NCBI RefSeq assembly: GCF_001429545.1
Contig: NZ_LMSP01000001.1
Coordinates: 539,189 to 603,188, forward strand
Origin: Paenibacillus sp. Soil787
GTDB taxonomy: Bacteria > Bacillota > Bacilli > Paenibacillales > NBRC-103111
Direction of reading: 5' to 3'
DNA: 64,000 nucleotides
Below, in pieces: positions 5,872 through 42,126 of this stretch (position 1 is the first letter of the stretch; every line of letters starts with the position of its first letter). Under the pieces are notes generated by a model. The model was not told the DNA's origin and did not search any database. It worked only from the letters and a program-made list of their open reading frames with translations. The translations under genes were made by a program, and so were the position numbers.

Positions 5872-7209
5872 ATGGTAAATAAATTTGCAAAAGTATTAGC
5901 AGGCTCGACAGCTCTAGCCCTTGCATTAACGGGATGCGGAGGTAAAGCATCGAACACAGGTTCCAGCGCTTCTCCCGCAGCTTCAGCTAAAGTGAGCGAA
6001 GCACCTAAGAAAGACGTAACTTTCAGTATCATTTATGCACCAGGCGATCCAGCGACGAAAAAAGCGGTGGAAGATTCAATTGCCGCCTTCGGCAAGGCAT
6101 TTCCACATATCAAAATTAAAAATCTCACTGAGGTTACTTCTGCATCCTACCTCGACTTCTTAAAAACGAAAGATGCTGTTGGCGAATTCCCGGATTTGGT
6201 TGAGATGCGTGACACACAGCTATTCGCAGACAATGGCAAGCTTGCAGAATTGCCTAAGGAACTGCAAGGATTATTCGATTCCATTCCTCAAGTAAACGGT
6301 AAAGTCTATAATGCGCCTATCTCTTTGGAAGCGCCACATGGGATTATTTATAGCAAAAAGGCTTATGCAGATGCAGGCATAACAGAAGAGCCTAAGACTT
6401 ATGCTGACTTTCTTGCAGCACAAGAGAAGTTGAAGGCCAAAGGCATTTCGCCAATCGTAATGGGTGGTAAGGATATTTTCCACTGGGGCTTCTGGATTAA
6501 TAAATATTTGATGGATGAAGTTCTTGGTGATGACCCTAATTGGAATTCCAAGCGTTCTAAAGGCCAAGTAAGTTTCACGGACGCTGGACCAATGAAAGCA
6601 ATGACGCTTTTCACTGAGCTTTTCACCAAAGGATATGTTGATCCGGGCTTCATGAGTACAGCTGATAACCAAACGGCTTCGATGCTTGTAACAGGCAAAG
6701 CGGCTAGCTTGTTCTCCGGTCCTTGGATGTTCCCGCAAATTGCGCAAGCAGATCCTAAATTCGAATTTGGTTTCTATCCGGTTCCAGATCAAAAAGGCAG
6801 AATTATTGTGAACGGGTTGGCGAAACCTTCTGGTTGGTCGTTATCTGCTGCGGCAGCTAAAGATCCGGATAAAGTGGCAGCGATGAGTGAATTTATTAAG
6901 TTCTTCTTCAGCAAAGACAATTATGCAGCTTATCTGAAGGCAGCAAGCGCTATTCCTTCTACCAAAGAGAAAATCAGTTATGAAGCTAGTCCCCAGCTTA
7001 AAGAGGTTCTCGATTTGATGGCTGATCCGAAGACAATTAAATCCCTTCAAATCAATGCGTTCTGGGGTGAGAATCAAATGCCTCCAACATGGCGCAACTG
7101 GTTCTATAAGCTTGCTCAGGATTGGATAATTAAAAAGGACTTCAGCGTAGAACAAATGAAAAAAGCGGATGCAGAATGGGATGCTGCTGTTAAAGCAATG
7201 AAAAAATAA
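5872..7209 (+). CDS. Extracellular sugar-binding lipoprotein of an ABC transporter
   Basis: 445 residues; ATG preceded by GGGAGG. A hydrophobic signal ends in the lipobox ALTGC, so Cys22 should be lipidated and the protein anchored outside the membrane. A Ser/Ala-rich linker precedes a family 1 solute-binding fold with segments such as FPDLVEMRDTQLFADNGKL and PISLEAPHGIIYSKKAY. It is followed by a weak terminator/attenuator and two permease genes, the standard order of CUT1 sugar importers. No ATPase gene is present; such systems usually borrow a shared MsmX-like ATPase. Confidence 0.93.
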   Translation: MVNKFAKVLAGSTALALALTGCGGKASNTGSSASPAASAKVSEAPKKDVTFSIIYAPGDPATKKAVEDSIAAFGKAFPHIKIKNLTEVTSASYLDFLKTKDAVGEFPDLVEMRDTQLFADNGKLAELPKELQGLFDSIPQVNGKVYNAPISLEAPHGIIYSKKAYADAGITEEPKTYADFLAAQEKLKAKGISPIVMGGKDIFHWGFWINKYLMDEVLGDDPNWNSKRSKGQVSFTDAGPMKAMTLFTELFTKGYVDPGFMSTADNQTASMLVTGKAASLFSGPWMFPQIAQADPKFEFGFYPVPDQKGRIIVNGLAKPSGWSLSAAAAKDPDKVAAMSEFIKFFFSKDNYAAYLKAASAIPSTKEKISYEASPQLKEVLDLMADPKTIKSLQINAFWGENQMPPTWRNWFYKLAQDWIIKKDFSVEQMKKADAEWDAAVKAMKK

Positions 7210-7229
7210 TATTAGGCTACAAATGAAGG

Positions 7230-7254
7230 AACCTCTGCAGGCAGCGGAGGTTTT
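7230..7254 (+). terminator. Attenuating hairpin between binding protein and permeases
   Basis: AACCTCTGC (7230-7238) pairs with GCGGAGGTT (7244-7252), a 9-bp stem with a 5-base loop and a short T tract. It probably lets through only part of the transcripts, giving more binding protein than permease. Confidence 0.6.
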
Positions 7255-7284
7255 CCTTCTCTAAGTCGATTGGAGCGTGAGAGA

Positions 7285-25421: not shown

Positions 25422-25510
25422 AGGCATGATCCGATATGCGGGTACAGATGAAGAAGTCCGCTTTTTAGCGATTAACGTCTAAAATGGACAATGAATTGGG
25501 GCATTCAATT

Positions 25511-25960
25511 ATGAAAGAAGCCAATGTCAGGGAAATTAGGGTAACTGATTATCACGATATTTATTTGTTGAATCAAGAATTTAACCCAAATCTGAATGTA
25601 TTCTCTAAAGAGAAAGTAATAGAGAAGATTGAAATCATTACAAAGAAAACTAAAGATATCATCTTTGTTTACGAACAAAACAAAGAAGTAATTGGATATA
25701 TTCATGGAAGCCCGTATGAATTACTTTTTTCCGAATCTTTAGTAAACGTCTTGGGATTTGTTGTTAAAAAAAATGATAGAAATCAAGGTAAGGGCAGCAT
25801 GTTGATTGAGCGTCTTGAACAGTGGGGAAAGGACAATGGATTTTCTGGGATGAAACTGTTATCCCACCCAAGTCGAATACATGCTCACGGGTTCTACGAA
25901 CGACGCGGCTATATGTTTACAAAGGACCAAAAAAATTTTATAAAAAAATTTGATGATTAA
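25511..25960 (+). CDS. GNAT-family N-acetyltransferase
   Basis: 149 residues from the ATG at 25511, which has GGGG 9 bp upstream; an ATG at 25484 is also possible. The fold is GNAT: VREIRVTDYHDIYLLNQEF start, VLGFVVKKNDRNQGKGSMLI (acetyl-CoA loop, motif A, with the R/Q-x-x-G-x-G pattern) and HGFYERRGYMF (motif B). The substrate is unknown. A+T content is clearly higher than in the preceding gene, hinting at separate origin. Confidence 0.85.
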   Translation: MKEANVREIRVTDYHDIYLLNQEFNPNLNVFSKEKVIEKIEIITKKTKDIIFVYEQNKEVIGYIHGSPYELLFSESLVNVLGFVVKKNDRNQGKGSMLIERLEQWGKDNGFSGMKLLSHPSRIHAHGFYERRGYMFTKDQKNFIKKFDD

Positions 25961-31885: not shown

Positions 31886-33289
31886 CTACTCCATCGCAGA
31901 TTGAATCTTGAATCTCTTTCTAGGAAATAGCAGCAAAATAGTTGTTCCTTTGTTCCTTTCCGTTTCAGCCAAAACGATGGAGCCGCCGTGCTTATGCATG
32001 ACGCCGTAGCAATAGCTAAGACCAAGGCCAAACCGTTCCGGACTCCGCTTCGTCGTGAAGAACGGATCAAATATTTTCCCGATATTTCCCTCAGCGATAC
32101 CGGAGCCGTTGTCTTTGACGGTGATCGTCAATTTGTTCTTGACAACATTCGTTGAAATTTCCAAAGTTCCTTCACCCGGCCGCATCGCATCGACTGCATT
32201 TAAACACAAGTTGTTCAATACTTCCTTTACATGCTCGATATCGCACATCAATTTTCCGTTCGCTTCACAACTCCATACGATGGTCATGTTTTTCGCTTCG
32301 ACGATGGGCGATAACGTTTGAACGGCATAGTCAATAATAGTCCGGAGCGGATAAGGGCTCTCGAGCAGAACGATGTCGTTTGTCTTCTCCTTGATCCGAT
32401 TGATCATGTACAACATATGTCTGGTCAAATGGTCGATGACCGTCAACTGTTCGATCGCCGTTTCGGGCTTCCCGTTTAGAATATGGGTTTTCGTCCGTTC
32501 ATTCAAGTAGTTGATTTTGGACAACTCGTTTTTTATCGAGTGGTTTAATATGGATGTGCCTAATGTGAGCGCTCTCATTGAGTAATCGTATTTTTCTTGC
32601 TCAAAATGCACTTTGATTCCCCAAATGCCGTATTTCACGCCAAAAACTATAAAAAAAACCACCATCAACAGGATAAGCAAATAATTGAAATGCCATAAAC
32701 CGTTGCTTTCAAAAACAAGTCCGTCGCTCTCGAACGACAGCCGAGATGTGCCGAGAAAATCCATCGAATACGACCAAACCATAAGCATGATCGTTACGCT
32801 TGCCGTTCGTACACGGCTCCTTCGGATCAGAATATTTCGTTCCTTCCAACTCCCGAGAATAAATAAAAGACAGCTGGCCAGCATATACACCCCGGCTATA
32901 AACCGGATTGAATCCATTTCGATAATATGCGGCGGTTTAGTGGCGAGATGGCGGATCAACGCAAGGATAGGCGGAATCGCCAGCAGCGCAATAACGGTCT
33001 TATTTCGCCTGAACGTCCGATTGAAAAAATAAATGGAACTGGAGAGGAATGCCCAGTCCACAAAATAGCTGTACAAATACGCTGCCATCAGACTGATTAC
33101 GTTCAGTGACTGATGGACCTGGGGTGAAAGGGCAAAGTGTTTAACAAGGAAAGGAATTACGATCAGACTCAGAGAAACCGCAAAACTGCCGCATCCCCCA
33201 ATGATCAAACAAATCCCCATGGCTAGCGGGAATCCGGATTTACCGTTGCGGATCAGGATCGTAGCGATCGTCCATACAGATAGGAACAT
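31886..33289 (-). CDS. Membrane histidine kinase, paralogue 1
   Basis: 467 residues from the ATG at 33289. The N-terminal half is a multi-pass membrane domain without a large extracellular loop. The kinase core has ILNHSIKNELSKINYLNERT (phospho-acceptor His about 250), NLCLNAVDAM (N box), VKDNGSGI (G1), FDPFFTTKRSPERFGLGLSY (F/G2 boxes). It is a close paralogue of the kinase at 34011. GGAGG lies 23 bp before the ATG but 8 bp before an in-frame ATC (33304) and 11 bp before ATT (33301), so translation may start there. Its cognate regulator is probably the LuxR-type protein at 35530. Confidence 0.88.
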   Translation of the reverse strand: MFLSVWTIATILIRNGKSGFPLAMGICLIIGGCGSFAVSLSLIVIPFLVKHFALSPQVHQSLNVISLMAAYLYSYFVDWAFLSSSIYFFNRTFRRNKTVIALLAIPPILALIRHLATKPPHIIEMDSIRFIAGVYMLASCLLFILGSWKERNILIRRSRVRTASVTIMLMVWSYSMDFLGTSRLSFESDGLVFESNGLWHFNYLLILLMVVFFIVFGVKYGIWGIKVHFEQEKYDYSMRALTLGTSILNHSIKNELSKINYLNERTKTHILNGKPETAIEQLTVIDHLTRHMLYMINRIKEKTNDIVLLESPYPLRTIIDYAVQTLSPIVEAKNMTIVWSCEANGKLMCDIEHVKEVLNNLCLNAVDAMRPGEGTLEISTNVVKNKLTITVKDNGSGIAEGNIGKIFDPFFTTKRSPERFGLGLSYCYGVMHKHGGSIVLAETERNKGTTILLLFPRKRFKIQSAME

Positions 33290-33429: not shown

Positions 33430-33906
33430 TCATGAATACCATTGAACAGACGGCAAATGGATTAGCGTATAGCCCCCGGGGATTGTTGTTCTCCCTAGTA
33501 ATTTGTTCGTAGCCGTATCGTATTCGTCGACGTAAACGTTGAAGACTTTCTTTCTGTACGTTACGACCGGCGTCCATACGGGTCCTACGTTCGCATAATA
33601 GGAGTGACTGTAGTAGTATATGGAAGGTGACTGAGGTTGCCCTAATTGTTTTCTGAAATTATAAAGCTGATCGCTTACCGATGCGTCTACGAAGTCCGTA
33701 TAGGAATATACTGTGCAATACTGGCTATTGGGATTTTGCAACGCATAGGTGGATAGACAGCTACCATCAACGGTTTCGGAGGATACGTACGGACTAAGGG
33801 AATATTTGTAATAAGTCGTTGCGGCGTGCGCCTTATTTCCTTCCCCTACAGCAAGAGTTGCAAAAATCATAACAAAACTCAGAATCATGAATAACGTTTT
33901 TCTCAT
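33430..33906 (-). CDS. Small secreted protein of unknown function
   Basis: 158 residues. A clear signal peptide (MRKTLFMILSFVMIFATLAV) ends at a KAHA-ATT cleavage site. The mature part of about 130 residues is rich in Tyr and Ser and has two Cys (GSCLST and QYCTVY) that could form one disulfide. I do not recognise the family. It lies between two paralogous histidine kinase genes on the same strand and shares an upstream 19-bp motif with the 38-residue exported peptide at 36444, so it may belong to the same signalling circuit. Confidence 0.8.
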   Translation of the reverse strand: MRKTLFMILSFVMIFATLAVGEGNKAHAATTYYKYSLSPYVSSETVDGSCLSTYALQNPNSQYCTVYSYTDFVDASVSDQLYNFRKQLGQPQSPSIYYYSHSYYANVGPVWTPVVTYRKKVFNVYVDEYDTATNKLLGRTTIPGGYTLIHLPSVQWYS

Positions 33907-34010: not shown

Positions 34011-35414
34011 TCAGCTGAGTATTTGCCTCGCCTTAAACATTTTGCCCGGAAAGCATAACAAGAAGGTGGTGCCTTTGTTATATTCCGTCTCAGACAAATG
34101 AATGGAACCGCCATGTTTGTGCATGACGTTGTAACAATAACTAAGACCGAGCCCAAATCGGTCCGGATTCCGCTTCGTCGTAAAGAAGGGATTGAATATA
34201 TTCTCGATATTGTCAGCGGAAATACCGGTGCCGTTATCTTTTATGGCAATCGTCAATTTTTTCATGATGACATTGGTTGAAATTTCCAAAATCCCTTTGT
34301 CTGGCTGCATCGCATCCACCGCGTTTAAACACAGGTTGTTCAATACTTCCTTCATATGTTCGATGTCGCATACCAATTGTCCGTCCGCTTCGCAGCTCCA
34401 AACGATGGTCATGTTCTTAGCTTCGACGACAGGGGTTAACGATTGAACGGTATAGTCGATCATTGTTCTGAGCGGATAAGGGCGTTCCACCAACACAATA
34501 TCGTTCGCCTTCTCCTTGATTCGATGGATCATATTCAGCACATGGCTCGTCACTTGATCGACGATTTCAAGCTGTTCGACCGCCGTTTCATGTAATCCTT
34601 TTTCCAGATAAGCTTTCGTTCGTTCATTCAAATAGTTGATTTTGGACAGCTCGTTTTTGATCGAGTGGTTTAATATGGAAGTGCCTAACGTGAGCGCTCT
34701 CATCGAGTAATCGTATTTTTCTCGCTCAAACCGAATTTTGATACCCCAAATACCATATTTCACGCCAAACACGATGAAACTGACCAACATCAACAGGATG
34801 AGCAAATAATTGAACTGCCATAGATCGTTGCTTTCGATAATCAGGCCGGTACTCTCAAAAGATAGCCGCGATGCGCCGATAAAATCCATAGAATAGGACC
34901 AAACGAGGGCCATGATTGTTACGCTAGCCGTTCGCACGCGGCTCTTCCGGATAAGTGCATTTCGTTCTTTCCAACACCCGATAACGAATAAAAGACAAGC
35001 GGCCAACATATACATGCCGGCTTTATACCGGATAGACTCGATATCTATAATATGAGGTGGTCTCGTGGCGAGATGGGAGATCAGCAAAAGAATAGGCGGA
35101 ATCGCCAGCAGGACAATGATTGTTTTTCTCCATTTGAACGTCCAGTTGCAAAAATAAATGGAGGCGACGAGTGTTGCCCAGTGAAAAAAGTACCAGTACA
35201 AATAAGCTCCAACGATCGTTACAGCAATCAACGTCTGCTTGACCAGAAGCTGGAGAACATGATGCTTTTCCAGGAAGGGAATAACGATAAGGTTCATGGA
35301 CACTGCAAAACTGCTGCTGCCCCCAATGATAAAAGCGATTCCCATGGCCAATGAAAATCCGGATTTGCCGCTTCGAATCAGTAAAGTCGCAATCGTCCAT
35401 AAGGAAATGCACAT
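34011..35414 (-). CDS. Membrane histidine kinase, paralogue 2
   Basis: 467 residues from the ATG at 35414, the same length as paralogue 1 and similar throughout, including the H box ILNHSIKNELSKINYLNERT, VKDNGTGI-like IKDNGTGI and FFTTKRNPDRFGLGLSYCY. The membrane domain is the more diverged half. As in paralogue 1, the strong GGGGAGG is 8 bp before an in-frame ATC (35429), 11 bp before ATT (35426) and too far from the ATG; residues IIYILM are conserved between the two before the ATG. A longer frame from 35537 would run far into the divergent regulator's promoter. Confidence 0.88.
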   Translation of the reverse strand: MCISLWTIATLLIRSGKSGFSLAMGIAFIIGGSSSFAVSMNLIVIPFLEKHHVLQLLVKQTLIAVTIVGAYLYWYFFHWATLVASIYFCNWTFKWRKTIIVLLAIPPILLLISHLATRPPHIIDIESIRYKAGMYMLAACLLFVIGCWKERNALIRKSRVRTASVTIMALVWSYSMDFIGASRLSFESTGLIIESNDLWQFNYLLILLMLVSFIVFGVKYGIWGIKIRFEREKYDYSMRALTLGTSILNHSIKNELSKINYLNERTKAYLEKGLHETAVEQLEIVDQVTSHVLNMIHRIKEKANDIVLVERPYPLRTMIDYTVQSLTPVVEAKNMTIVWSCEADGQLVCDIEHMKEVLNNLCLNAVDAMQPDKGILEISTNVIMKKLTIAIKDNGTGISADNIENIFNPFFTTKRNPDRFGLGLSYCYNVMHKHGGSIHLSETEYNKGTTFLLCFPGKMFKARQILS

Positions 35415-35529
35415 AAGAATATAAATGATATGGAATACCTCCCCAAAAATTAATCTTTTATTCAAAAAAAGAAACCCATATAATGAAGATATTAATGGAA
35501 AAACGGATTTAGTAAAAGAGGGTATGTTC

Positions 35530-36126
35530 GTGCACAAAATAAAAGTTTTGCTAGTGGAGGACGACGCATTTTGGAAGAAGCGATTGTCGGAAGACTTGGG
35601 AGCCGAAGCGGATATCGAGGTGGTAGGAATTGTCTCCTCCCGAGAGGAAGCAATCGCTTTTTTTCAGCAGAGTGAGGCGAATGTCGTCTTGCTCGATATC
35701 AATTTGACGGATAACAATCTCGACGGTTTGGATGTGGCCCGGGATATATACCGCCTGTCGACGCCGCAACGTCTGATCCGGATTGTCATGCTGACTTCCT
35801 TGGACGAAGAGGATGTCATTCTCCGTTCATTTCAGAATGGCGCTGTAAATTTTATTACGAAATCCAGCTGCCAGGACATCCTGGGAGCGATTAGGGACGC
35901 TTACGCCGGTAGGTCGTCCATACATCCGGATTCGGCGCCAGTCCTTGTTCGGGAAATGCAGCTAAACGTCCTTACACCGATGGAAAGAGAGGTTTATAAA
36001 CTGAGAGCGAAGGGTTTGAGCAAGACGCAAATTTCCGAAAAGCTGTTCAAATCGGTCAACACGATCAAAACGCAGTTGAAAAGCATTAAAAACAAGTTGT
36101 GGAGTGAAGACCATCAAGACAAATGA
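35530..36126 (+). CDS. LuxR/NarL-type response regulator
   Basis: 198 residues. I chose GTG at 35530 because GAGGG (35518-35522) is 7 bp upstream; the ATG at 35524 would be 1 bp from it. The receiver domain has the Glu-Asp-Asp pocket in LLVEDDAFW, phospho-acceptor Asp56 in VVLLDINLTD and Lys in NFITKSS. The output domain (about 138-195) is a GerE-like helix-turn-helix, LTPMEREVYKLRAKGLSKTQ then ISEKLFKSVNTIKTQLKSI. It is divergent from the kinase pair and directly upstream of the peptide/RiPP genes. A TATAAT (35479-35484) may be its -10 box. Confidence 0.9.
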   Translation: MHKIKVLLVEDDAFWKKRLSEDLGAEADIEVVGIVSSREEAIAFFQQSEANVVLLDINLTDNNLDGLDVARDIYRLSTPQRLIRIVMLTSLDEEDVILRSFQNGAVNFITKSSCQDILGAIRDAYAGRSSIHPDSAPVLVREMQLNVLTPMEREVYKLRAKGLSKTQISEKLFKSVNTIKTQLKSIKNKLWSEDHQDK

Positions 36127-36443: not shown

Positions 36444-36560
36444 ATGATGAGAAAGGTTGCGTTTTGTCTGTTGATAGCTGCCACTTTACTTGTTTCCGGT
36501 CTTTACGGTTCCAGCGATCACGCCATGGCCAAAGTTAATGAGTACGAAGGGCAGCATTGA
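36444..36560 (+). CDS. 38-residue exported peptide, candidate pheromone
   Basis: Too short for usual gene calling, but AAAGGAGGATG precedes the ATG at ideal distance. The peptide MMRKVAFCLLIAATLLVSGL continues YGSSDHAMA and ends KVNEYEGQH. It has a basic start, a hydrophobic core and an A-M-A signal peptidase I site, so the predicted mature product is the nonapeptide KVNEYEGQH. This is the architecture of small signalling peptides such as Phr factors. It lies between the LuxR-type regulator and the M50/MccB-like genes. The family and function are not known to me. Confidence 0.65.
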   Translation: MMRKVAFCLLIAATLLVSGLYGSSDHAMAKVNEYEGQH

Positions 36561-36590
36561 ATGTATCCGAAGGGGTGATAACAGAAGCAA

Positions 36591-37853
36591 ATGAAAATGA
36601 AGGTGGGAAAACACAGTATCATCGAGATGCACGAGCTCGTTTTTCATAAAGAAAATGAAGCCGAAGTGGTCATTGGCCGTACGGAAACTAATACGTTCAT
36701 CTTGCTGCCTGCAATTGGGCACGAAACCATTGAATTAATACAGCGAGGATTAACAATCGGAGAAACTGAACACAACTTGTATCAAAAATACATTGAGCCT
36801 TTCGACGTTTCCGCTTTTGTCGAAGAGTTAATAGAAGATCATAAACTCGTGTACCGCTTAGATGGCAATATCGTAAATAGCCGTGTGCAGATCCAAGAAC
36901 ATTTCACTTGGCTTCATGCCAAAACCGGCCGTTTTTTCTTCAATCCGATCTCTTATTTCATGTATTTCGCCATACTTCTATCCGCTGCGGGCATCGTATT
37001 CCTTCATCCCGCATACATCCCGAGTTATAAAGACTTCCTACTTACTCCTTCTACACCATTGAACATAACATTTTCCCTTGCAGCAGCTTGGTTTCTTCTC
37101 TTTCTTCATGAATTTGCACATTTGATATCCGCTCGTTCTTTGGGAGTCAATTGCAGAATCGGACTTGGCCACAGGTTGATATTTCCGGTCGCTGAAACTG
37201 ATATGTCCGGCATTGTCGTTGTTCCGCGAAATCAAAGATACAGCGCCTTTATAGCCGGAATGTGCTGGGATATTGTTTTTTTATCAGCAGGCGTATGGCT
37301 TGAGTGGCTTCATGATCTGCAAATGATCGTTATGAATGAGAATGTCCTGTACACGATCCGTTTGATCAACTGTAATTTAACTGCGCTTATCCTATTCCAG
37401 TTTCTATTTTTTATGAAAACCGATTTATATTATGTGTTCACGAATTATTTCCGCTGCCCGAATCTGCTGGAGCATACATTTTTATACTTCAAATGCCGCT
37501 TTAATTCAAATCCCCAATTGACCGAACAATGGGATGAAGTCTCAGTCATGGAAAAGAAAATCATCTATGGATTTGCCTGGTTCTATATGGTCGGGGGTTT
37601 GGTAACGGTAACAATATGGATCCTCGTTCAACTTCCGAATCTATACAGGTTCATAAGCGCTTCGATTGCACAAATGTCCAAAATGCCTCTTCTATCGTGG
37701 AGCTTCGCAGCCGGCATACTGCTGATCGGTTTATGTTTGCTTCCAAGCGCAGTTCTCACCTGGTCATGGATCAAATCGATTAGAAGCAGGTTCATGAAAA
37801 ATGGCTTGAAAGGAGGTGAGCAAATTGAAAAAAATTACAATCAAACCCGTTAA
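36591..37853 (+). CDS. M50-type membrane metallopeptidase with PqqD-like N-terminal domain
   Basis: 420 residues; the ribosome binding site before ATG 36591 is weak. Residues about 20-90 form a PqqD/RRE-like winged-helix region that may bind a peptide. The rest is a multi-pass membrane protein with the zinc motif HEFAH (residues 173-177) and a later MKTDLYYVFTNYF segment that often carries the third ligand in YydH-type M50 proteins. Such proteins occur in RiPP loci. The last 29 bp overlap the first precursor peptide gene, which argues for one unit with the MccB-like enzyme. Its role could be cleavage, export or immunity. Confidence 0.8.
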   Translation: MKMKVGKHSIIEMHELVFHKENEAEVVIGRTETNTFILLPAIGHETIELIQRGLTIGETEHNLYQKYIEPFDVSAFVEELIEDHKLVYRLDGNIVNSRVQIQEHFTWLHAKTGRFFFNPISYFMYFAILLSAAGIVFLHPAYIPSYKDFLLTPSTPLNITFSLAAAWFLLFLHEFAHLISARSLGVNCRIGLGHRLIFPVAETDMSGIVVVPRNQRYSAFIAGMCWDIVFLSAGVWLEWLHDLQMIVMNENVLYTIRLINCNLTALILFQFLFFMKTDLYYVFTNYFRCPNLLEHTFLYFKCRFNSNPQLTEQWDEVSVMEKKIIYGFAWFYMVGGLVTVTIWILVQLPNLYRFISASIAQMSKMPLLSWSFAAGILLIGLCLLPSAVLTWSWIKSIRSRFMKNGLKGGEQIEKNYNQTR

Positions 37854-37887
37854 AACAGTTAAAACGACAGGTCTCACTCTGAACTAA
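37825..37887 (+). CDS. Candidate microcin C-like precursor peptide 1
   Basis: A 20-codon gene with a TTG start 8 bp behind AAAGGAGG. The product is MKKITIKPVKTVKTTGLTLN. The C-terminal Asn is the hallmark of microcin C-type precursors, whose last residue is linked to a nucleotide by an MccB enzyme, encoded just downstream. A second copy at 39190 is identical in 17 of 20 residues although the genes differ by silent changes in eight shared codons, strong evidence that the peptide is translated and selected. It overlaps the 3' end of the M50 gene. Confidence 0.8.
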   Translation: MKKITIKPVKTVKTTGLTLN

Positions 37888-37921
37888 TCCCTATCGCACA
37901 AAGAACAGCAGGTAATAGGCA

Positions 37922-37981
37922 GGGGAGCCTTGGCAATCTATGGCTACCCGCTTATTACGTCCCTGTAAGAAATATCAGGGA
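37922..37981 (+). promoter_or_regulatory. Two hairpins between precursor 1 and the MccB-like gene
   Basis: GGGGAGCC (37922-37929) pairs with GGCTACCC (37942-37949) with one mismatch; TCCCTG (37960-37965) pairs with CAGGGA (37976-37981). Without a T run they look like attenuation or mRNA-processing structures that would make more precursor than enzyme, as a hairpin between mccA and mccB does in E. coli. Confidence 0.5.
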
Positions 37982-37997
37982 AATCGGAGGGAAGAAC

Positions 37998-39188
37998 GTG
38001 ACTTTGAATATGACCTTGAAGCCGATGGTGAAAAAAACGGTATTTATCAGGGAACAGGAAAAAGGGTTGATTCGCGTCGGCGAACTTTTTCCTGATCGTG
38101 CTGTTGAAATAGAAGATGAGGACGGGTTCATTCAGCAGCTTATTGGGCGGATGGATGGAACCCAAACAATCAATCAGATTTTGGCCGAACTCCAGAGCCT
38201 CGATACAACGGTTACAGCAGAAGAGCTTTCTGAGATAATTAGCGCGCTTGATGCTATCGGTTTGCTCGATAACCAGGCGTCAGCCGCATACGGCAGCTTT
38301 TCATCTACGGAGCTGGAGAGGTATAAAGCGAATTTGAACTATTTTACTTCCGCTTCCAGACTAGCAAACAGTCCTTGGGAGATGCAGCGAGGGCTCAAAC
38401 ATGCGAAAATAACCGTTATCGGCGTCGGAACCCTCGGCTCGGGCGTGCTGTTTAACCTTGCAGGTCTAGGCGTCGAAAACGTTCGAATTGTCGATTTTGA
38501 TAACGTTGAATTGAGCAACTTGAACCGACAGCTGTTATTTAAAGAAGAGGATATCGGCAGACGAAAGATTGATGCGGCGAAGGATTTTATCCGCAGATTT
38601 CATTCCCGGATGGAACTGGAATGTATTCCGGGCGAAATAAGATCAACCGAAGATGCGGAAAATGCCATCGCTGATAGCGACTTCGTGGTGCTTTCCGCAG
38701 ATCAGCCTCATTTTTTGTTGGAACGTTGGGTAAATCAGGCTTGCGTAAAGCACGGCATTCCTTTTATCGGTGGTGGGGTGAATGCTGTAGAAGGGCAGCT
38801 ATATACCGTCGTCCCTGGAAAAACAGGCTGCCTGGATTGCAATTATCTTTTACACAGCCGGCAGGATGAGGACTATCTCCCATTCATCCAGAGTTATGTC
38901 TCCTCCGGCTTTAAAATGCCCAGCACAGCAATAGCGCCTAATTACATGCTTTTAACCGGGATGGTGTGCGGGGAAGTGGTGCGCATGATCACAAGGGCGA
39001 ATGCTGCGCAATCGGAAGGAAAAGTGGTTTCCATTCATTTCGAGACCTTTCAAACGCAAATCAAGATGGACTTCTCCAGCCCATCCCCGGATTGCCCTAC
39101 ATGCGGTCATGGCAAGGGTAAGGAACCTATTTTCCGGTTTTTTCGTGACTTGGAAGAATCAACCCAAAAATGCAGAGGAGGTTATTAG
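37998..39188 (+). CDS. MccB-like ThiF/E1-family adenylating enzyme with N-terminal peptide-clamp-like domain
   Basis: 396 residues; GTG start 6 bp behind GGAGGG. Residues 1-95 resemble a PqqD/RRE-like domain; MccB also has an N-terminal peptide clamp. The E1 core follows: nucleotide loop GVGTLG (142-147), Asp166/Asp168, SNLNRQLLF (173-181) with the catalytic Arg, Lys190, and a zinc site from Cys278/Cys281 (GCLDC) and Cys366/Cys369 (CPTC). No ubiquitin-like or ThiS partner is nearby. Flanking Asn-ending peptides point to nucleotidyl transfer onto a peptide C-terminus. Confidence 0.85.
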   Translation: MTLNMTLKPMVKKTVFIREQEKGLIRVGELFPDRAVEIEDEDGFIQQLIGRMDGTQTINQILAELQSLDTTVTAEELSEIISALDAIGLLDNQASAAYGSFSSTELERYKANLNYFTSASRLANSPWEMQRGLKHAKITVIGVGTLGSGVLFNLAGLGVENVRIVDFDNVELSNLNRQLLFKEEDIGRRKIDAAKDFIRRFHSRMELECIPGEIRSTEDAENAIADSDFVVLSADQPHFLLERWVNQACVKHGIPFIGGGVNAVEGQLYTVVPGKTGCLDCNYLLHSRQDEDYLPFIQSYVSSGFKMPSTAIAPNYMLLTGMVCGEVVRMITRANAAQSEGKVVSIHFETFQTQIKMDFSSPSPDCPTCGHGKGKEPIFRFFRDLEESTQKCRGGY

Positions 39189-39189
39189 C

Positions 39190-39252
39190 TTGAAAAAAAT
39201 CAAAATCAAACCGGTTAAAACGGTGAAAACAACAGGATTGGCAACTAATTAA
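39190..39252 (+). CDS. Candidate microcin C-like precursor peptide 2
   Basis: A 20-codon gene with a TTG start behind GAGGAGG, 1 bp after the stop of the MccB-like gene. The product is MKKIKIKPVKTVKTTGLATN. It differs from precursor 1 at residues 5, 18 and 19 and keeps the final Asn. It is followed by a terminator at 39349. Two precursors flanking one enzyme suggest a two-product system or a duplicated substrate. Confidence 0.8.
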   Translation: MKKIKIKPVKTVKTTGLATN

Positions 39253-39348
39253 AAGATTATTGTCGTTTGGGCAAGGGAAATGGTATTTTTGAGGGGTTCG
39301 GCTCGAACCATTGTTGTTGATGTGACTATTGATAGCGGGAAATCAAAA

Positions 39349-39381
39349 AAGAACCTGAGTATTTTATCAGGTTCTTTTATA
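39349..39381 (+). terminator. Terminator of the RiPP locus
   Basis: AAGAACCTGA (39349-39358) pairs perfectly with TCAGGTTCTT (39367-39376), followed by a T-rich tail. Confidence 0.9.
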
Positions 39382-39531
39382 TTGCATATAAACAGACACG
39401 ATGATATAATCTGATTACGACTTTGACAATTTACATCGGCATAATTATTGCATCTTACACTTTGAATATACCATGCCGGTAAGCTCTTGTCAATTGTTTT
39501 TTCTCAATTTAATGGTGAGGAGAGATGTTGA

Positions 39532-42126
<2,595 letters not shown>

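What the first reader, a model, noticed from the sequence alone, without database searches (positions are those of the whole stretch)
36444..39252. Candidate microcin C-like (peptidyl-nucleotide) RiPP locus with two Asn-ending precursors
Seen: an E1/ThiF-family enzyme with an N-terminal peptide-binding-like domain and an intact nucleotide and zinc site (37998-39188), flanked by two 20-codon genes whose products both end in Asn, plus hairpins between precursor 1 and the enzyme. Known: microcin C is made by MccB, a ThiF homologue that attaches a nucleotide to the C-terminal Asn of a short precursor; the E. coli precursor is MRTGNAN and Bacillus homologues also end in Asn. Inferred: this locus makes a related peptidyl-nucleotide. 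Unusual here are two precursors on either side of the enzyme, a PqqD-like/M50 membrane protein in place of the usual MFS exporter, and no recognisable immunity gene such as MccE or MccF.
Basis: partly seen in the sequence, partly recalled or inferred. Interest (0 to 1): 0.95.

Follow-up and report, generated by a model that had tools for sequence, protein, structure and literature searches.

The report
ThiF–M50 peptide locus ending in asparagine
This stretch looks like a small factory for a short modified bacterial peptide: an activating enzyme and a membrane protease, each with a peptide-gripping domain, beside two tiny peptides that end in asparagine; it resembles but does not group with the microcin C antibiotics, and what it makes is still unknown.

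Summary
Observation confirmed. Two 20-codon TTG-start genes (37825-37887, 39190-39252) flank a 396-aa RRE-ThiF (E1) enzyme (37998-39188), with a strong hairpin between precursor 1 and the enzyme; base changes concentrate at third codon positions, as in translated genes. Interpretation partly supported. In the enzyme's own clade (7 E1s, support 100/99) the 11 precursors I recognised all end in Asn. But the E1 does not group with MccB (AU p 0.00014 and 0.023), and its sister subclade lies beside precursors ending in A, T, V, C or Y (0 of 12 Asn). The M50 protein is not an odd stand-in for an exporter: the pair recurs in Bacilli and Actinobacteria (36 of 46 E1 loci scanned for both), and the protease carries its own N-terminal RRE (VIA Z 10.3 to lasso leader-binding proteins). 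Best reading: the E1 adenylates the C-terminal Asn, an Asn-dependent closure follows (imide or ring, about -18 Da), and the RRE-M50 protease removes the leader at the membrane. A peptidyl-nucleotide stays a strong rival (0.29). I found no description of this ThiF/RRE-M50 family in the searched library, which lacks most subscription papers. New variant of a known kind (ThiF-like RiPPs).

The parts
36591..37853 (+). RRE-M50 membrane metalloprotease (420 aa): N-terminal RRE (about residues 9-92), membrane helices, HEFAH 173-177, Asp278 in MKTDLYY; predicted leader peptidase/releasing protein
   Evidence: Fold: RREs of lasso B1 proteins, Z 10.3, rmsd 2.0 over 79 residues. H173, E174, H177, D278 invariant in 6 of 6 aligned rows including three actinobacterial ones. 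Pfam M50 18.3 bits, below its cut-off 27.2.
37825..37887 (+). precursor 1, LKKITIKPVKTVKTTGLTLN; overlaps the 3' end of the M50 gene
   Evidence: TTG after aaaggaggtg; counterparts in G028, G561, Cohnella sp. CFH 77786 and P. flagellatus, all ending in Asn.
37888..37997 (+). hairpin(s) between precursor 1 and E1, possible mRNA stabiliser/attenuator
   Evidence: -39.8 kcal/mol, z -3.47. Minimum-energy folds of eight other such gaps, without shuffle control: stem-loops in seven, not in G028 (23 nt).
37998..39188 (+). RRE-ThiF-like E1 adenylyltransferase (396 aa); predicted to adenylate the precursor C-terminus
   Evidence: Pfam ThiF 7.3e-53; PDB sequence hits PaaA 1.4e-31 over residues 6-354, MccB 1.3e-30 over 102-371; Foldseek top MccB 3h9g 1.5e-20, TMq 0.67; catalytic-type and zinc-type residues.
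39190..39252 (+). precursor 2, LKKIKIKPVKTVKTTGLATN
   Evidence: TTG after gaggagg; a second precursor sits in the same place in G028 and G561.
36444..36560 (+). 38-aa signal-peptide-like ORF ending KVNEYEGQH; possible accessory or pheromone-like peptide, uncertain
   Evidence: 72.5% identical ORF at the same place in G028 with the same last nine residues; no convincing match in the other loci held at that time.
35425..36126 (+). LuxR-type response regulator, candidate regulator (context)
   Evidence: Pfam Response_reg 6.4e-15, GerE 2e-07. The G016 relative (52%) lies near a ThiF-M50 locus, but a closer relative (56%) in G678 does not.
34011..35537 (-). membrane sensor histidine kinase, candidate sensor (context)
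   Evidence: Pfam HATPase_c 1.8e-21; best match in 13 other same-genus genomes is a G016 kinase about 3.5 kb from a ThiF-M50 E1.

Best explanation
The locus is a compact RiPP pathway. The RRE of the E1 grips the Lys/Val-rich first half of the 20-mers (KKIxIKPVxxVK), threads the C-terminus into the E1 active site and adenylates the C-terminal Asn20 carboxylate with ATP. The Asn makes an intramolecular closure possible (C-terminal succinimide/imide, or a small ring with upstream residues of TTGLxxN), giving a product lighter by about one water. The RRE of the M50 membrane protease then grips the same leader and cuts it near the TTG motif in or at the membrane, releasing a short modified C-terminal peptide, perhaps a signal read by the kinase/regulator next door. 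Shown by computation: gene content, coding constraint on the precursors, RRE and E1 folds, active-site residues, Asn conservation, recurrent pairing with RRE-M50. Inferred: adenylation of Asn, the closure, the shared leader binding, the cleavage site, export and signalling.
For: ATP-type and zinc-type residues intact, with the spacing R-13-K-45-D reported for EnfB Arg167/Lys180/Asp225 (PMC12250964 section 17); fold MccB/PaaA. Asn is the one C-terminal residue common to all 11 recognised precursors of the 7-E1 clade although the core varies: TTGLTLN, TTGLATN, TTGLTTN, TTGLCLN, TTGLAFN, TTGLTVN, LTGRNLN, WGIRIAN, WGMRVAN; the more basal G565 precursor also ends in Asn. RRE-M50 in 36 of 46 E1 loci scanned for both (about a dozen of these are near-duplicates), and in 3 of 3 actinobacterial loci. 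M50 RRE. EnfB, IndF and GrcB close rings through an acyl-adenylate (PMC12150305, parts 1-2 of 3; PMC12250964 sections 14 and 17); the M50 protease EpeP is thought to cleave and export an epipeptide (PMC10885120, passages).
Against: No product is known. The sister subclade has no Asn (0 of 12 recognised precursors), so chemistry common to both cannot need Asn; either the Asn group has its own chemistry or Asn serves another role. Two of 7 Asn-clade E1s (L196, L197) have no M50 in the 7.2 kb fetched. No precursor was recognised in a number of loci, among them L109-L111 of the sister subclade. Precursors were chosen by me among several short ORFs per locus, by nearness and leader-like sequence. 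The E1 model has mean pLDDT 61 only. Kinases like the three tested lie near only some loci.
Confidence: 0.47

Rival explanations
1. Microcin C-like: the E1 forms the Asn succinimide and lets it attack a second NTP, giving a peptidyl-nucleotide (N-P bond); the M50 protein trims and releases it.
For: C-terminal Asn in 11 of 11 recognised precursors, which PMC6495379 (passages) reports for all the McC-like precursors it found, with long precursors (17-56 aa) in one MccB clade; TG then Asn recalls MccA MRTGNAN, where Thr3 and Asn7 matter (PMC12250964 section 4), though the Asn is three places after the Gly there and four here; best fold match is MccB; a validated McC-like cluster in H. minutum has two long precursors and a non-MFS exporter (PMC7157772 passages).
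Against: E1 outside the MccB clade: AU p 0.00014 with 4 window-clade rows, 0.023 with 7 rows, both tests set after the tree was seen; sister enzymes beside non-Asn precursors; no MFS, GNAT, S66/S51-type peptidase or HIT gene by Pfam among the 12 window proteins scanned between 29.3 and 46.3 kb.
Confidence: 0.29
2. C-terminal activation followed by attack of an outside amine or by amidation, so the product is a C-terminally capped linear peptide.
For: EnfB can amidate its activated C-terminus (PMC12250964 section 17); would fit the many different C-terminal residues of the wider ThiF-M50 family.
Against: Does not explain the strict Asn in this clade.
Confidence: 0.1
3. Scaffold-type (pearlin-like) pathway: the M50 acts as a carboxypeptidase and releases only the modified C-terminal residue(s).
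For: M50 proteases TglG and TmoG cut modified residues from the C-terminus of scaffold peptides (PMC10885120 passages).
Against: No LanB/PEARL-type hit by Pfam among the 12 window proteins scanned; core residues before Asn differ between clades, which fits a peptide product better.
Confidence: 0.05
4. A housekeeping sulfur-carrier E1 (MoeB/ThiF) with chance small ORFs.
For: Pfam ThiF; NCBIfam TIGR02356 at 2.1e-36, 125 bits.
Against: RRE, precursor conservation, pairing with RRE-M50; MoeB-type rows sit on a long separate branch; none of the 25 listed NCBIfam models reaches its cut-off.
Confidence: 0.02

Closest known systems
Microcin C / MccB (E. coli; B. amyloliquefaciens type)
   Same: RRE-E1 fold, ATP-type and zinc-type residues, short precursor ending in Asn next to the E1
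   Different: Separate E1 clade; 20-mers with a Lys/Val leader; RRE-M50 partner; no MccC/D/E/F-like gene found near; sister enzymes beside non-Asn precursors
Enterofaecin-type (EnfB, WWIII/WWIVI precursors) and IndF (NWYFI)
   Same: Precursors near 20 aa with a basic leader (the WWIII-ending Niallia precursor MKKVTVRRATKVEATTWWIII against LKKITIKPVKTVKTTGLTLN); RRE-E1
   Different: No Trp and no hydrophobic C-terminus in the window precursors; ABC transporters or M16 peptidase described there, M50 here; the WWIII-type E1 (L019) is in another clade
Pantocin A / PaaA
   Same: Best PDB sequence match, RRE-E1 architecture
   Different: Pantocin A's core comes from Glu residues (recalled); window precursors hold no Glu; the pantocin-annotated row L146 lacks the zinc-type cysteines present here
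EpeP (epipeptide) and TglG/TmoG (pearlin) M50 proteases
   Same: Membrane M50 protease in a RiPP cluster
   Different: Here the protease has an N-terminal RRE domain and pairs with a ThiF-like E1; whether EpeP or TglG carry an RRE I did not test

Membership tests
Microcin C-like peptidyl-nucleotides (MccB family) | precursor ends in Asn | tested here: met
   window 2 of 2; clade 11 of 11 recognised
Microcin C-like peptidyl-nucleotides (MccB family) | E1 in the MccB clade | tested here: not met
   trees; AU p 0.00014 and 0.023; long branches, post-hoc test
Microcin C-like peptidyl-nucleotides (MccB family) | nucleotide joined by N-P bond | not testable with these tools
   needs an enzyme assay or mass spectrometry
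Microcin C-like peptidyl-nucleotides (MccB family) | MFS exporter and MccE/MccF/HIT-type immunity gene next to mccB (usual, not universal: H. minutum has an ABC exporter) | tested here: not met
   12 window proteins between 29.3 and 46.3 kb scanned by Pfam, none of these types; the rest of the genome was not searched for them
RRE-dependent ThiF-like (TLAT) RiPPs | ThiF/E1 catalytic domain with ATP-type and zinc-type residues | tested here: met
RRE-dependent ThiF-like (TLAT) RiPPs | N-terminal RRE on the E1 | tested here: met
   phmmer aligns residues 6-354 with PaaA 5-367; three strands + three helices in residues 17-86 of the model; Pfam PaaA-like_N 20.3 bits, below its cut-off 27; the domain was not folded or searched alone
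RRE-dependent ThiF-like (TLAT) RiPPs | short precursor gene with ribosome site beside the E1, under coding constraint | tested here: met
Pantocin A (PaaA) | Glu residues in the precursor core (recalled) | tested here: not met
   no Glu in either precursor
Enterofaecin / Ind type | Trp-bearing hydrophobic C-terminus (WWIII, NWYFI) | tested here: not met
   window precursors hold no Trp
GRC type (GrcB) | Glu and C-terminal Cys for a thiolactone | tested here: not met
   no Glu and no Cys in the window precursors
M50 (site-2-protease-like) peptidases | HExxH in a membrane helix plus distal Asp | tested here: met
   HEFAH 173-177 inside helix 155-183 of the model; D278 invariant in 6 of 6 rows; that D278 is the third zinc ligand is inferred
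M50 (site-2-protease-like) peptidases | Pfam gathering score | tested here: not met
   PF02163 18.3 bits against 27.2

The most novel reading that the evidence does not exclude
A RiPP class defined by two enzymes that read one leader through two separate RREs, one on a C-terminal-activating E1 and one on an intramembrane M50 protease. In the Asn-ending branch it makes a C-terminally Asn-derived product (succinimide, ring or peptidyl-nucleotide, the last evolved apart from MccB) that serves as a secreted signal sensed by the neighbouring membrane kinase.
Probability: 0.25. Interest if true: 0.8.

Novelty: new variant of a known kind. Interest (0 to 1): 0.57.

Why it matters
ThiF-like RiPP enzymes give very different products from one acyl-adenylate, and what decides the outcome is open. 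This family offers natural pairs of close enzymes beside Asn and non-Asn substrates, so the role of the last residue can be tested directly. It also brings a protease with its own RRE: a simple two-enzyme system (about 3 kb) for testing how one leader is handed from modification to cleavage.

Tried and rejected
Microcin C membership was tested by trees and AU tests and not met; the second test (7 rows) is weaker (p 0.023), both were set after seeing the tree and long branches are in play, so this lowers rather than kills the claim. Sulfur-transfer E1 was rejected. A genome-contig scan with A1 gave 6 loci; both its patterns fell in the first 60 residues. Plasmid tblastn gave 378 records, all under 60% identity, the best listed being 32% over 93% of the query (H1) and 35% over 71% (H11) (30 and 60 rows shown). 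PDB sequence search with the M50 alignment gave nothing. PHROGs gave only families of unknown function for the E1 and none for the M50. The VIA-align list for the M50 model shows no M50 protease for the membrane part, which is barely tested there. The precursor of L178 (620-aa E1, taken by length and neighbours as the B. amyloliquefaciens MccB type) was looked for and not identified. PMC13381572 (outline and passages) was checked as a possible description of this family and dropped: ThiF and M50 occur 0 times in it. The Regni 2009 and Dong 2019 MccB papers are not held, so MccB contacts of Asn7 could not be compared. Figure S1 of the IndF paper, said to show further uncharacterised ThiF clusters, is in a supplement that I could not see; this family may be there. 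The kinase/regulator link is suggestive only: all 14 same-genus genomes searched hold weaker kinase homologues, the regulator's best relative among the five other genomes searched is in G678 on a contig without its E1 loci, and kinase homologues were sought only with three kinases.

It shows two long precursors and a non-MFS exporter in a validated McC-like cluster, which weakens two of my arguments against microcin C; I raised that rival from 0.27 to 0.29 and lowered the best reading from 0.48 to 0.47.

Rows left out: tree 1 (57 rows) left out L108 (E1 frame interrupted), six near-identical g60 rows (L096, L097, L098, L100, L101, L103), L185 and L147; tree 2 (50 rows) further left out L183, L186, L180, L023, L142, L184, L182, L145, L124, L015, L111, L095 and the MoeB row, and added L195-L200. 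Of the 46 loci scanned for both genes, about a dozen are near-duplicates, and the yardstick loci L021, L140-L147 and L178-L186 were scanned for the E1 only. No precursor was recognised in L013, L016, L026, L108-L111, L118 and L122, nor in some yardstick loci.
Full report
What is there. The E1 gene (37998-39188, GTG, 396 aa), the two 20-codon genes (37825-37887 and 39190-39252, both TTG after strong ribosome-site sequences) and the M50-like gene (36591-37853) are in the sequence as described. Precursor 1 overlaps the end of the M50 gene; precursor 2 starts right after the E1 stop. The stretch between precursor 1 and the E1 folds at -39.8 kcal/mol, z -3.47. Minimum-energy folds of eight other such gaps, without shuffle control, show stem-loops in Cohnella, P. 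flagellatus, L099, L102, L104, L107 and L114; the G028 gap (23 nt) is too short for one. The two precursors differ at 15 bases, 10 of them third positions (p 0.0085); the pair in G028 shows 12 of 17 (p 0.0019). This is what protein-level constraint on translated genes gives.

The enzyme. Pfam gives ThiF at 7.3e-53 and a sub-threshold PaaA-like N-terminal domain. The closest PDB sequences are PaaA (1.4e-31, residues 6-354) and MccB (1.3e-30, residues 102-371). The AlphaFold model is modest (mean pLDDT 61, six rows), but Foldseek ranks MccB first (3h9g, 1.5e-20, TMq 0.67), then PaaA (8.1e-18), ahead of MoeB and ThiF. R177, K190 and D235 have the spacing of EnfB Arg167, Lys180 and Asp225, reported to serve ATP and Mg (PMC12250964 section 17; the equivalence is inferred), and four zinc-type cysteines are kept; the pantocin-annotated row L146 lacks the cysteines.

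The M50 partner. The model (pLDDT 71) has an N-terminal domain that matches lasso leader-binding B1 proteins (6jx3 and 5v1u: Z 10.3, rmsd 2.0 and 1.9 over 79 and 78 residues), so the protease very likely has its own RRE. The H-E-H motif and a distal Asp are kept in 6 of 6 rows, actinobacterial ones included. Of 46 loci with the E1 that I scanned for both genes, 36 hold this M50 protein, close to the E1 in all but two (L023, L118); 15 of 15 loci fetched for the M50 alone had no E1 hit. About a dozen of the 36 are near-duplicates of one genus. In a class sample 29 of 398 genomes had the E1 at E <= 1e-35 and 35 of 398 the M50 at 1e-20, own genome included, few candidates scored per genome. Three actinobacterial loci (Sphaerisporangium, two Nonomuraea) show the pair too. 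The 'unusual' M50 is thus this family's frequent partner.

The Asn end. Nine carry TG with the Asn four places after the G; the other two read WGIRIAN and WGMRVAN and have no M50 in the 7.2 kb fetched. The more basal G565 locus has a candidate ending CTTMVTRN between E1 and M50, with a weaker ribosome site. The sister subclade (9 rows) has 12 recognised precursors, none ending in Asn (endings AVAA, LLNAT, PPSLY, TSV, AAV, CVAC, CVDC); for its rows L109 and L110 none was recognised. In the next clade out the endings are mixed (HAS, HHA, HHN, STI and others). So Asn is kept in one branch and absent in its sister. The precursors were picked by me among several short ORFs per locus, by nearness, ribosome site and leader-like sequence, not blindly.

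Is it microcin C? The MccB group (E. coli MccB with MRTGNAN beside it; L179 with MHRIMKN; the 620-aa L178) stands apart (support 98/93, 98/91). Forcing the window clade together with it is rejected at p 0.00014 (4 window-clade rows) and 0.023 (7 rows); both tests were set after seeing the tree, and long branches are in play. PMC6495379 (passages) says all its McC-like precursors carry the C-terminal Asn needed for the N-P bond, and knows precursors of 17-56 aa, so a 20-mer is no obstacle. PMC7157772 (passages) describes a McC-like cluster with two long precursors, two MccB enzymes shown to add 329 Da, and an ABC-type exporter, so two precursors and a missing MFS pump do not speak against microcin C. 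MccB goes through a C-terminal succinimide (PMC12250964 section 4); any enzyme that adenylates a C-terminal Asn could reach that stage (inference), which is why I keep the nucleotide product as a strong rival.

How it most likely works. By analogy with EnfB, IndF and GrcB, which adenylate a carboxylate and let an internal nucleophile attack (PMC12150305, parts 1-2 of 3; PMC12250964 sections 14 and 17), the E1 should adenylate Asn20; the Asn side chain or a nearby group then closes. The RRE-M50 should bind the same leader and cut it in or at the membrane; an M50 protease is thought to do cleavage and export for epipeptides, and M50 carboxypeptidases act on pearlin scaffolds (PMC10885120, passages). 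Adenylation, closure, cut site and export are inferred. No published description of this ThiF/RRE-M50 family turned up in my ten paper searches, and 'M50' occurs 0 times in RRE-Finder (PMC7470986), the ThiF review (PMC12250964) and the 2025 RRE survey (PMC12710340). Most subscription papers are not held and no supplement was seen, among them Figure S1 of the IndF paper.

Regulation and setting. A membrane histidine kinase and a LuxR-type regulator lie just upstream. The kinase's best match in 13 other genomes of the genus is one in G016 about 3.5 kb from a ThiF-M50 E1 of another subclade, with a regulator relative between; but the regulator's closest relative among five other genomes is in G678, on a contig without its E1 loci. 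G561 has a GHKL-type kinase with seven hydrophobic segments right after precursor 2, and the WWIII-type Niallia locus a kinase/regulator-like pair, judged by eye. The stretches of G028, P. flagellatus and Cohnella show no match to these kinases. Pfam on 12 window proteins from 29.3 to 46.3 kb shows no MFS, GNAT, MccF-type or HIT gene; a GNAT-like ORF by eye lies 11 kb upstream at 25484-25960. This leans slightly towards a signal, without proof.

Noticed in passing
36444-36560 (+): 38-aa ORF with a signal-peptide-like start and the end KVNEYEGQH, after a strong ribosome-site sequence; 72.5% identical in G028 at the same place with the same last nine residues, no convincing match in the other loci then held. 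Could be a secreted pheromone-like peptide.
   Followed up: partly
39532-42126 (+): Next gene downstream scores above cut-off both as rifamycin-inactivating phosphotransferase (NF041857, 1483 bits) and as a PEP-synthase-type model (NF004879, 1740 bits).
   Followed up: no
39343-39460 (-): Rfam RF02449 (ncr1015 sRNA, 107.8 bits) lies in the gap before that gene, on the other strand, with a sigma-70-type promoter match (11 of 12) at 39493-39465 on the same strand.
   Followed up: no
31886-33289 and 34011-35537 (-): Two membrane histidine kinases about 72% identical, perhaps a recent duplication, with a 158-aa protein of no Pfam family between them at 33430-33906.
   Followed up: partly
L106 (G254): Two ThiF-like E1 genes in tandem, one preceded by five similar precursors ending in Val, the other by one precursor ending in Tyr.
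   Followed up: no
L107 (G280): ThiF-M50 locus with two precursors ending CVAC and CVDC, a possible thiolactone or disulfide variant.
   Followed up: no
L197 (G678): Second Asn-type E1 of this genome: precursor VKKVQIKAVETIIWGMRVAN, no M50 in the stretch, an MFS gene upstream; the P. flagellatus locus L012 also has an MFS gene next to the E1, on the other strand.
   Followed up: partly
L195 (G561) about 6200-7269: A PqqD-like small protein and another gene downstream suggest a lasso-type cluster near the ThiF-M50 locus (by eye only).
   Followed up: no
L199 (G622) 2812-2871 and 2901-2966, in the orientation of the E1: Two copies of MKINVKKVEVLVPLINHHN in another ThiF-M50 group end in Asn, while the related L114/L115 precursor ends in NHHA.
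   Followed up: no
L125-L127, L135, L138, L139: RRE-M50-like proteins without a ThiF sit just before a 700-756-aa gene of unknown kind in several Bacilli genomes: perhaps another system that uses the same protease type.
   Followed up: no
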